9,956 bases of DNA from Geminicoccaceae bacterium. Lineage in GTDB: Bacteria > Pseudomonadota > Alphaproteobacteria > Geminicoccales > Geminicoccaceae. The DNA lies in contig JAPJRA010000071.1 in the NCBI GenBank assembly GCA_030824835.1, forward strand, positions 445 to 10,400, written 5' to 3'. Made by a program: the position numbers and the translations under genes. Numbering within the stretch: the first letter of the stretch is position 1; every line of letters starts with the position of its first letter. Below are positions 7,199 through 9,208 of this stretch, piece by piece. The notes under the pieces are model-generated. The model ran no database searches and was not told the origin of the DNA. It worked only from the letters and a program-made list of their open reading frames with translations.

Positions 7199-7273
7199 TC
7201 CGGCGTGGCGCAGCGGTAGCGCAGCGGACTGTTAATCCGTTGGTCGTAGGTTCGAATCCTACCGCCGGAGCCA
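7199..7273 (+). tRNA. tRNA-Asn (anticodon GTT); att site of the adjacent element
   Basis: Full cloverleaf. The acceptor TCCGGCG pairs with CGCCGGA, the D stem is GCGC/GCGC, the anticodon loop CTGTTAA has GTT at 7231-7233, the T arm carries GTTCGAATC, the discriminator is G and CCA is encoded. It follows tRNA-Cys after 62 bases and is probably co-transcribed. The minus-strand recombinase gene ends inside the T arm, so the tRNA 3' end is probably the attachment site. The gene itself is intact. Confidence 0.97.
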
Positions 7274-7275
7274 AT
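7245..7275. other. Probable att junction at the tRNA-Asn 3' end
   Basis: Inferred boundary between chromosome and element. The T arm and acceptor 3' half of tRNA-Asn abut and overlap the end of the recombinase gene. No second copy of the tRNA 3' end occurs elsewhere in the window, so the exact core and the other end cannot be set. Confidence 0.5.
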
Positions 7276-8908
7276 TCGGAACGAAACTGCGAACGCCGTG
7301 CGCCGCAGTTTCCACTCCATAGTTTCCTCCAGACGCCACAAGCGTCTGGAGGAGCCTTGGCTTCGATCCCCTGATCCGAATTTCGTCGGCTCCGACCTCC
7401 ACCCGCTGAACTAGCGCCTGGAGATGATGGCGCCGGAAACCGCCCTCTCGATCCCTGATCTTCTTACGAGCCTCGATGCCGAACCGACGCAGCAGCTCCG
7501 GCGTCACTCGATTGTCGTCGCCCTCTCCCCTGTTTTCGGCCCGGTCCGCATCGGCCCGCGCCGAATCACGGATCCGCTTCAACTCGACAATCCGCCCCTT
7601 GAGGTTGGAATCGTCCATTTCAGCGAGACCATTCTCAATGGCCTCATACAGCCGAGTCAGCTTGGCTTCCGCGTCCGCAGCCTGCTTCCTCAGCTCGGCG
7701 ATCCGCCCCTTCAGGCGTCCGGCGTGTTCCTCCCTGCGCTTAAGCAGGCCGGCGAGCAACTCCTCAAGCCGCTCGGGCGCAAGAAGTCGCTCCTCCAGAT
7801 GCGACACAACAATCGTATCCAGCTCGTCCATCGGGATCGTGCGGCCGCGGCACGCCGTCTTCCCCTGCCGTGCCGTCGTGCAGCAGTTGTAGTAGCGGTA
7901 TTGGTCCCCCTTGCCGGAGGTGCGGAGGGTCATAGCTCCCCCGCAATCGGCACAGAAGCACACGCCGCCCAGGAGCGTCCCGGCCGTTACGAACCGCGGG
8001 GCCTTCAGTTGCGGGCTGCGCGACCGCATGACCGCCTGAACTTCAGCGAATTCCTCCTCGTCGATGATCGGCTCGACCGCCACGTCGATGATCTCGTCTT
8101 CCGACTTCTGCTCTCCCTTACGCTTGCCCGAGACGTTGAAGCGATGGCGGCCGATGTAGGTCTCCCTGGTCAGGATTTGGTGGACCGCCCCGACGCCCCA
8201 GCGCCCGCCGGTCTGCGTCCGAATACCGCGCGTGTTCAGATAGTCGGCGATCTGGCGGGACCCCATTGGACCGTCGTCGGCGCCGACCCGTGCGAGCCGG
8301 AACATGAGCTGGACCGTCTCCACCTGGGCCGGATCGGGCTCGATCTTCTTCTTGGTCCTCGCGCCCCGCTGCTCGGCCGCCACGATCCTGTCTCCGAATG
8401 GCGGCCGCGAGCCATTCCAATAGCCCTGGCGGGCGTTCTCGCGCATGGCCCGGAGCGTGTGCTTGGCGTTCTCCTTCGACTGGTACTCGTCGAATAACGC
8501 CATGATCTGGCGCATCATCACGCTCATCGGATCATCCCCGAGATCCTGCGTGATGGAAGTCAGGCGGATATCGTTCTTCGCCAGCCGCCGGACGTAGAAT
8601 TCGAGCTGGAACTGATCGCGAAAGAAGCGCGAGAAAGAATGGACGATGATGAAGTTGAACGGCGCAGGCTTCTGCGCTCCGGCATCCATCATCCGCTGAA
8701 ACTCAGGCCGCCGGTCGTCTGTCGCCGATGCGCCCGGCTCGACAAACTCGGCGACGATGGCGATCCCCTTCGCTTGGCAATAGGCCTGAAGTTGGCGGCG
8801 CTGATCCGGAATCGAAAGATCATGTTCGGCCTGCCGGCCGGTCGAAACACGCAAATAGAGCGCGGCACGCCCCGGCGATGCCAAGGCGGGGGTCGCTTTG
8901 GCATTCAT
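7259..8908 (-). CDS. Large serine recombinase (resolvase/integrase family)
   Basis: 549-aa site-specific recombinase that cuts and religates DNA through a phosphoserine intermediate. The resolvase domain spans about residues 14-160: YLRVSTGRQ gives catalytic Ser22, and HSFSRFFRD (90-98) carries active-site Arg residues. A recombinase domain follows (about 165-300, with SRQIADYLNTRGIRT and ILTRETYIG). Next is a zinc ribbon (CFCADCGG at 317-324, with CC at 342-343 and C353). A coiled-coil segment lies at about 375-460, then a C-terminal extension ending SFVPNWLRR. The ATG at 8908 has GGAGG six bases upstream. The stop codon TAG at 7261-7259 lies inside tRNA-Asn on the opposite strand. It follows a small gene by 21 bases, probably as an operon. 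Length and domains fit an element integrase rather than a small resolvase or invertase, and the gene looks intact. Family is certain; target specificity is inferred. Confidence 0.95.
   Translation of the reverse strand: MNAKATPALASPGRAALYLRVSTGRQAEHDLSIPDQRRQLQAYCQAKGIAIVAEFVEPGASATDDRRPEFQRMMDAGAQKPAPFNFIIVHSFSRFFRDQFQLEFYVRRLAKNDIRLTSITQDLGDDPMSVMMRQIMALFDEYQSKENAKHTLRAMRENARQGYWNGSRPPFGDRIVAAEQRGARTKKKIEPDPAQVETVQLMFRLARVGADDGPMGSRQIADYLNTRGIRTQTGGRWGVGAVHQILTRETYIGRHRFNVSGKRKGEQKSEDEIIDVAVEPIIDEEEFAEVQAVMRSRSPQLKAPRFVTAGTLLGGVCFCADCGGAMTLRTSGKGDQYRYYNCCTTARQGKTACRGRTIPMDELDTIVVSHLEERLLAPERLEELLAGLLKRREEHAGRLKGRIAELRKQAADAEAKLTRLYEAIENGLAEMDDSNLKGRIVELKRIRDSARADADRAENRGEGDDNRVTPELLRRFGIEARKKIRDREGGFRRHHLQALVQRVEVGADEIRIRGSKPRLLQTLVASGGNYGVETAAHGVRSFVPNWLRR
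7325..7353. repeat. 12-bp perfect stem inside the recombinase 3' end
   Basis: TCCTCCAGACGC and GCGTCTGGAGGA are separated by the 5-base loop CACAA. The hairpin lies in codons of the recombinase C-terminus and 52 bases downstream of tRNA-Asn on the plus strand. Neither side has a T-run, so it is not a standard terminator. It might be a recombinase-binding dyad, a processing or stalling signal for the tRNA transcript, or chance. Confidence 0.8.
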
Positions 8909-8929: not shown

Positions 8930-9175
8930 TTAGTTTTTCGAGCCCAACAGCTCGTCGAGAATCTGACCGAAGTGGACCTCGAAAAGGTCCAGCTCAGCCT
9001 CAGCGACCGGCACGTGATCGGGCCAATCATCAGAGACTTTGCGGCTCGCTTGGTGCTCGACCCCTTTCCGAGCGCGTGACCGCGGCTCGGGCACCGCCGA
9101 CCGGACCGGGCGGACGTAGTCGTAAAGGTCGGCGTCGCCCTGCGACGCTGAGAATTGAACCACGTTGGCAGACAT
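8930..9175 (-). CDS. Small hypothetical protein upstream of the recombinase
   Basis: 81-residue product starting MSANVVQFSASQGDADLYDY, with a basic middle (PRSRARKGVEHQASRK) and an acidic, probably helical C-terminus (AEAELDLFEVHFGQILDELL). I do not recognise the family. No cysteine cluster, signal peptide or membrane segment is visible. A GTG eight codons upstream would give an 89-aa form; I prefer the ATG because the N-terminus looks natural, although neither start has a good Shine-Dalgarno. It ends 21 bases before the recombinase start and has the same direction, so the two are probably one transcript. A role as accessory or directionality factor for the recombinase is only a guess from position. 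Confidence 0.55.
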   Translation of the reverse strand: MSANVVQFSASQGDADLYDYVRPVRSAVPEPRSRARKGVEHQASRKVSDDWPDHVPVAEAELDLFEVHFGQILDELLGSKN

Positions 9176-9180
9176 GCCGT

Positions 9181-9208
9181 CATTGTTGCATTTAACCACA
9201 CAACATTG
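9181..9208. promoter_or_regulatory. Imperfect inverted repeat ahead of the small gene and recombinase
   Basis: CATTGTTG (9181-9188) and CAACATTG (9201-9208) form an 8-base repeat with one mismatch and a 12-base, AT-rich centre, just upstream of the preferred start of the small protein. It could be an autoregulatory operator of the recombinase operon. No clear -35/-10 pair was placed. Confidence 0.3.

What the first reader, a model, noticed from the sequence alone, without database searches (positions are those of the whole stretch)
7199..8908. Large serine recombinase seated on a tRNA-Asn 3' end
The recombinase gene runs convergently into tRNA-Asn and its stop codon lies within the tRNA T arm, so the last residues (NWLRR) are encoded by the antisense of the tRNA. 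tRNA 3' ends are the classical target of tyrosine integrases, while large serine recombinases usually use other sites. The arrangement implies that the recombinase 3' end was set by integration, or that its C-terminal codons travel with the att core. This marks the left border of a genomic island extending to the right.
Basis: partly seen in the sequence, partly recalled or inferred. Interest (0 to 1): 0.7.

Follow-up and report, generated by a model that had tools for sequence, protein, structure and literature searches.

The report
Integrase gene split by its insertion
A DNA-inserting enzyme's gene here runs into the neighbouring tRNA-Asn gene, so the enzyme's last amino acids are that tRNA gene read backwards; in relatives the gene's missing end, coding a predicted DNA-binding domain, lies at the other end of the mobile element, so insertion likely cuts the enzyme's own gene in two.

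Summary
The large serine recombinase (LSR) gene (8908-7259, minus) converges on tRNA-Asn(GTT) (7199-7273); codons W-L-R-R and the stop are antisense tRNA, W being CCA read backwards. It is a family rule: 63 of the 80 best genome loci have a full antisense tRNA at the LSR 3' end: tRNA-Asn in the window's clade, tRNA-Arg, -Ser or -Glu in sister clades.

Acceptor 3' strands fit each host's own 5' strand although the LSRs are 95-99.8% alike, so the tRNA's 3' half is host DNA and crossover lies in its last bases. Far ends mapped in relatives share only 8-12 bp with the tRNA end. The T-loop (TTCGAA) sits about where an attB zinc-domain motif should.

Unexpected: in tRNA-Asn relatives the far end carries about 100 codons in frame with the same W codon, coding an AbiEi-like winged-helix domain; one Mesorhizobium contig has LSR and domain as one gene. 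The free circle therefore likely encodes an LSR-winged-helix fusion that integration severs. The window's own far end is out of reach; a close relative (98% LSR, Ferrovibrio) has the domain.

The parts
7259..8908 (-). large serine recombinase, 549 aa; Resolvase, Recombinase and zinc-ribbon domains; last four codons and stop inside tRNA-Asn
7199..7273 (+). tRNA-Asn(GTT) with encoded CCA; inferred attL, host side
7269..7273 (+). AGCCA: predicted crossover region (tRNA 3' end), by analogy with mapped relatives
   Evidence: inferred
7274..7298 (+). element-side att arm (inferred P half-site); motif TGCGAAC at 7288-7294, 15 bases after CCA as in 54 of 69 loci
7321..7357 (.). hairpin inside the 3' end of the LSR gene
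   Evidence: function unknown
8930..9199 (-). 89-aa ORF just upstream of the LSR; relatives found upstream of the LSR in 86 of 98 loci; candidate directionality factor (guess)
   Evidence: no family match

Best explanation
The recombinase gene reads into tRNA-Asn, so that its codons for WLRR and its stop are antisense tRNA sequence, and this is likely the attL end of an integrated island whose insertion cut the recombinase gene in two, the missing 3' part being predicted to lie at the island's far end. How it works: the LSR joins its attP to the 3' end of a tRNA gene, with crossover inside the last bases; the T-loop sequence TTCGAA, common to nearly all tRNAs, would serve as the zinc-domain motif of attB (inferred from position). 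Because attP lies inside the LSR's own reading frame, integration swaps the gene's end: the integrated LSR keeps its recombinase domains but ends in a short host-encoded tail, while in the tRNA-Asn clade about 100 codons for an AbiEi-like winged-helix domain are left at attR, cut off from the LSR's start codon. In the excised circle the frame is predicted to close into one LSR-winged-helix protein of about 650 residues. Shown in relatives: both junctions, island size, frame, one fused gene. Inferred: that the fusion is made, its role (most likely to favour integration or to regulate the circle), and the far end of the window's own island.
For: LSR frame enters an antisense tRNA in 68 of 68 loci with a full tRNA. 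Window, L003-L008, L012: LSRs 95-99.8% alike, six acceptor sequences, all pairing perfectly with the host 5' strand. Far ends: Sphingomonas trio, Mesorhizobium G141. Domain in frame from the W codon: intact in 19 of 32 loci, Pfam AbiEi_4 E 4e-7 and 1e-6. LSR and domain contiguous in L016; LSR end and domain contiguous in G129 and, by eye, in five database proteins. LSR and domain on one contig in the needed orientation in G141, G028, G041, G310. Domain present in 10 of 13 genomes with window-type LSRs. Codons 27-95 protein-like.
Against: The window's own far end is not seen. No full-length fused LSR was found among database proteins of fitting length. Three of 13 genomes lack the domain (G308, G001, G316); drafts, so not conclusive. 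The mapped Sphingomonas tRNA-Arg element has no such domain: its circle would add only about 18 residues (read by eye). Codons 15-26 show little protein constraint (third/first-second ratio 1.36). Codon 27 is ATG/GTG/TTG in 9 of 20, so some copies could start on their own. 13 of 32 loci are broken, shifted or changed at W. Domain poorly modelled.
Confidence: 0.75

Rival explanations
1. The AbiEi-like ORF is an independent gene at the element's end; its frame merely happens to be open up to attP, and it has no tie to the LSR.
For: Codon 27 is a start codon in 9 of 20, database entries such as P0122 begin there, and codons 15-26 are weakly constrained.
Against: 11 of 20 lack a start there, yet the domain stays intact; the frame is open from W in 19 loci; L016 has one frame through LSR and domain.
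Confidence: 0.17
2. Crossover lies in the T or anticodon loop and the element carries its own tRNA 3' half, as many tyrosine-integrase elements do.
For: Some loci have a tRNA fragment of about 46 nt, to the anticodon loop, beside the LSR.
Against: Acceptor 3' strands follow the host, not the LSR; mapped far ends share only 8-12 bp with the tRNA. The fragments fit later insertion of other elements into the tRNA (not tested).
Confidence: 0.05
3. The LSR is a passenger: another integrase put the island at tRNA-Asn.
For: The 3' flank of tRNA-Asn is a busy site with many different neighbours in Mesorhizobium and Sphingopyxis.
Against: The LSR-side end is conserved up to CCA in tRNAs of several amino acids and diverges there.
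Confidence: 0.03

Closest known systems
Archaeal 'suicidal' (SSV1-type) tyrosine integrases
   Same: attP inside the integrase gene; integration at a tRNA gene splits that gene (PMC8371274, passages)
   Different: those are tyrosine recombinases, described there as exclusively archaeal, and the split inactivates them; here a bacterial serine recombinase keeps its recombinase domains and loses an added C-terminal domain
Serine integrases that use a tRNA gene (phage phiRSM1 at tRNA-Ser; Mycobacterium AICEs at tRNA-Leu)
   Same: LSR-mediated insertion at a tRNA gene (PMC3218068, passages)
   Different: one tRNA each as described; no gene splitting mentioned in the passages seen; their proteins were not compared here (one search failed)
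Integration-dependent immunity of mycobacteriophages
   Same: integration changes a protein's C-terminus at attL, adding seven bacterial codons in MabB phages (PMC8092301, passages)
   Different: there the repressor is changed, here the recombinase
Multi-targeting LSRs
   Same: one LSR lineage, several targets (PMC10083194, passages)
   Different: here all targets are tRNA 3' ends; the word tRNA does not occur in that paper's main text

Membership tests
Large serine recombinase / serine integrase | Resolvase, Recombinase and zinc-ribbon domains in order | tested here: met
   Ser22 invariant in 18 members; that it is the catalytic serine is recalled
Large serine recombinase / serine integrase | att sites with a short common core | tested here: met
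   relatives only: 8 bp and 12 bp; not testable for the window
Large serine recombinase / serine integrase | zinc-domain motif in attP arms, about 5 bp nearer the core in attB (PMC3783163, passages) | tested here: inconclusive
   positions fit, shift 5-6 bp by my count; no binding data
Suicidal (self-splitting) integrase | attP inside the integrase reading frame; gene parts at both ends after integration | tested here: met
   relatives: L016, G141, G028, G041, G310; window: left part only
Suicidal (self-splitting) integrase | tyrosine recombinase of archaea, inactivated by the split | tested here: not met
   serine recombinase domains, all on the LSR side; loss of activity not testable
Integrative conjugative element | conjugation genes between attL and attR | tested here: inconclusive
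   coupling protein, CagX and TrbI proteins in the Ferrovibrio island; window's cargo not seen
AbiEi antitoxin | AbiEi winged-helix domain | tested here: met
   AbiEi_4 above its cut-off in both exons scanned; fold model too poor to confirm
AbiEi antitoxin | toxin partner gene next to it | not tested
   neighbours of the exons were not searched for a toxin

The most novel reading that the evidence does not exclude
A bacterial 'suicidal' serine integrase: its attP sits in its own frame, so integration is a domain-swap switch. The circle makes an LSR-winged-helix protein; insertion at the 3' end of a tRNA gene replaces the winged helix with a tail written by the host tRNA in antisense, recording the integrated state in the enzyme itself and setting the direction of recombination.
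Probability: 0.4. Interest if true: 0.88.

Novelty: new variant of a known kind. Interest (0 to 1): 0.73.

Why it matters
If true, an integrase changes its own domain make-up by the reaction it catalyses, so how serine integrases choose direction could be tested with two natural forms of one protein. The family also finds the same spot in tRNA genes of five amino acids (Asn, Arg, Ser, Glu and, in distant members, Thr), which may be of use for DNA insertion. And it explains two sets of odd database entries: recombinases with tails such as PGPDSNQRPTG (antisense tRNA) and 'AbiEi antitoxin' proteins with unrelated N-termini (flanking sequence read into the orphaned exon).

Tried and rejected
A matrix search for a mirror image of the first att arm in the upstream flanks found nothing that stood out against shuffles. 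Far end from shared host flank in Sphingopyxis: the strains differ right after tRNA-Asn. A NUDIX gene as host-flank mark: its match in Ferrovibrio lies in another gene context and was dropped; the exon on that contig was found later. Flank L133 as mark: no junction found. A 15-45 bp repeat at the far end: not present in the two mapped relatives. Structure of the fusion: the added domain is mostly under pLDDT 60, so no fold search was made.

Rows changed or dropped: L021 (called tRNA-Ala by ARAGORN) was counted as Arg(ccg) in the tree, L092's call (wrong strand) was dropped, L037 and L096 were left out of the tree, L099 and L100 were in none of the scripts; 29 of 104 tree rows bear no tRNA label. 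L210, whose LSR end has no full tRNA, was also not put in the tree. Counts over 69 loci use only loci with a full tRNA starting TGG, L001 and the window included.

Print: ten answered paper searches listed no paper that I recognised as reporting a gene-splitting serine integrase or a serine integrase family for many tRNAs; listings only, and the library lacks most subscription papers. One paper I wanted is not held. Seen as passages only: PMC12884075, PMC3218068, PMC5704250, PMC10083194, PMC8092301, PMC8371274, PMC3783163, PMC11530663.

Full report
OBSERVATION. The LSR ORF is 8908..7259 on the minus strand; tRNA-Asn(GTT) is 7199-7273 on the plus strand with its CCA encoded. The gene ends ..AAT TGG CTC CGG CGG TAG. 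AAT lies just outside the tRNA; TGG is CCA read backwards; the rest is acceptor stem, and the stop is in the 3' strand of the T stem. The protein has Resolvase, Recombinase and zinc-ribbon domains.

A FAMILY RULE. Among the 120 listed relatives, tails such as WLPGPDSNQRPTG recur; GAT TCG AAC (D-S-N) is the T-loop read backwards. In an alignment of 18 members W546 is invariant. With a local ARAGORN run, 63 of 80 have a full antisense tRNA at the LSR 3' end, as have 4 of 18 viral contigs (L099 and L100 were not put to the script). Several of the others hold a tRNA fragment there. Of 14 further regions fetched, eight have the antisense tRNA at the LSR end (two of them, L215 and L216, repeat L040 and L045) and six do not; two LSRs of about 31% identity end in tRNA-Thr (L207, L208).

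WHICH tRNA. The window's clade (67-98% identity to the window) sits on tRNA-Asn wherever a full tRNA is present; L016 has none. Sister clades sit on tRNA-Arg, -Ser and -Glu. On a quick tree of 104 rows, 75 labelled, the tRNA's amino acid needs 10 changes and the anticodon 32; with unlabelled rows as a group of their own, 30 changes against 59.5 in shuffles. LSRs 96-98% identical occur at different isoacceptors (L054/L056, L044/L051, L045/L050/L058), and in one Jannaschia assembly LSRs 94-97% identical sit at tRNA-Glu (L064) and two tRNA-Ser genes (L070, L080).

WHERE THE CROSSOVER LIES. Window, L003-L008 and L012 have LSRs 95-99.8% alike but six different acceptor sequences, each pairing perfectly with the host's 5' strand; over 69 loci 59 pair perfectly and 64 with G-U allowed, the exceptions being L018, L021, L064, L086 and L001. 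Two near-identical elements, L063 and L069 (95.7% over 11.6 kb, both beside tRNA remnants), part company after TGGCGG. So the tRNA's 3' half is host DNA. In the family of L008's genome, which shares the window's tRNA-Cys/tRNA-Asn order, loci without the element (L114-L119, L121-L124) have tRNA-Asn-CCA followed at once by what reads as an intrinsic terminator.

FAR ENDS. Three Sphingomonas genomes share 45.25 kb upstream of the LSR at 99.9-100%, while the flanks beyond are about 90% alike in two of them. Near the end of the shared stretch comes ..CGGTGCGGGGCGCCA, then a terminator that differs between the three hosts and so is taken as host DNA; several Sphingomonas genomes without the element have CCA followed directly by a terminator of this kind. 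In Mesorhizobium G141 the flank of L111, which three other genomes share in part and which I take for the empty state, resumes 49.1 kb from the tRNA, joined as ..tttttgaaatatt|TGGCTCCCCGGGTCGAATGAAACCGCGAACTACGAG. The shared core is 8 bp and 12 bp. In G141 the two arms carry ACTGCGAAC and ACCGCGAAC as an inverted pair about the core. In 54 of 69 loci the arm motif TG[CG]G[AC]AC starts exactly 15 bases after CCA, and TTCGAA of the T-loop starts at the 18th base from TGG in 65 of 69. By my count the T-loop motif lies 5-6 bp nearer the core; Rutherford et al. report a zinc-domain motif shifted 5 bp towards the centre in attB (PMC3783163, passages). I infer that the T-loop, at a fixed distance from CCA, is what lets one family use many tRNAs.

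THE GENE IS SPLIT. Reading on from TGG at the G141 far end gives 102 residues without a stop; in L016 LSR and the like stretch form one frame, and Pfam matches both to AbiEi_4. Of 146 Mesorhizobium genomes 35 have the domain at E 1e-8 or better. Of the 30 loci returned there plus L232 and L010, 19 are open from the W codon at about full length; the rest are shifted, cut, run on or changed at W. Codon 27, where some entries start, is ATG/GTG/TTG in 9 of 20. Pooled dN/dS is 0.39, 0.33, 0.11 and 0.15 along the domain, without a test. In 24 exons (one with R for W, one with a stop) codons 27-95 show a 3.8-fold excess of third-position change; codons 15-26 only 1.36, so they look like a linker. Of 13 genomes with a window-type LSR, 10 have the domain, one with a stop and one at only 36% identity. 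In G141, G028, G041 and G310 LSR and domain share a contig in the orientation that a circle needs, 49.1, 46.8, 25.8 and 70.3 kb apart; the G310 (Ferrovibrio) LSR is 98% identical to the window's. Only for G141 was the host flank checked against an empty relative. In G129 an LSR end and the domain are contiguous. Of the 120 listed of 312 database proteins with the domain, 77 have it after an unrelated N-terminus by a pattern rule; by eye five of the 120 (P0156, P0177, P0183, P0200, P0201) have an LSR-like end there. A search for full-length fused LSRs found none.

WHAT THE ISLAND IS. The Ferrovibrio island carries a conjugative coupling protein, CagX and TrbI conjugation proteins, a heavy-metal ATPase, a ParB-like protein and a helicase (nine of its ORFs scanned), so it is likely an integrative conjugative element. 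The window's cargo is unknown: similarity to L004 ends about 0.6 kb upstream of the LSR.

COMPARISON AND VERDICT. The nearest idea in print is the archaeal suicidal tyrosine integrase, described as exclusively archaeal (PMC8371274, passages). Here chemistry, kingdom and the part removed differ: the recombinase domains stay together. I call it a new variant of a known kind. Shown: the overlap, the family rule, the host origin of the tail, two far ends, the in-frame exon. Inferred: the fusion protein in the circle, its role, and that the window's own island has the exon.

Noticed in passing
window 8930-9199 (-): An 89-aa ORF just upstream of the LSR has relatives upstream of the LSR in 86 of 98 loci and no match in Pfam, NCBIfam or PHROGs; a candidate directionality factor.
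   Followed up: partly
window 7321-7357: A strong hairpin lies inside the 3' end of the LSR gene; many relatives have one of other sequence 2-84 bases from CCA, many do not (mean score 11.6 against 8.75 in plain shuffles).
   Followed up: partly
L084, L091, L092, L097, L098, L034, L043: Beside the LSR only a tRNA 3' fragment of about 45-48 nt is left, ending near the anticodon loop; perhaps a later insertion of another element into the same tRNA.
   Followed up: no
L101-L112, L125-L144: In the Mesorhizobium genomes looked at, the 3' flank of tRNA-Asn mostly differs from genome to genome, as in Sphingopyxis: a hotspot for several kinds of element.
   Followed up: no
L001 (MT839362.1): A record named 'Bacteriophage sp.' is 99.4% identical over 4.3 kb to a Sphingomonadaceae MAG (L011), with LSR and tRNA-Asn: a piece of bacterial chromosome rather than a phage genome.
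   Followed up: partly
L026, L027, L058: Contigs labelled Mycobacterium sp. KBS0706 and Bacillus sp. 2B10 carry this otherwise alphaproteobacterial LSR family at tRNA genes; probably mislabelled or contaminated assemblies.
   Followed up: no
L040, L041, L044: A 46-kb island is 99.9-100% identical in three Sphingomonas genomes, two of which are about 90% alike in the flank beyond: recent horizontal transfer.
   Followed up: partly
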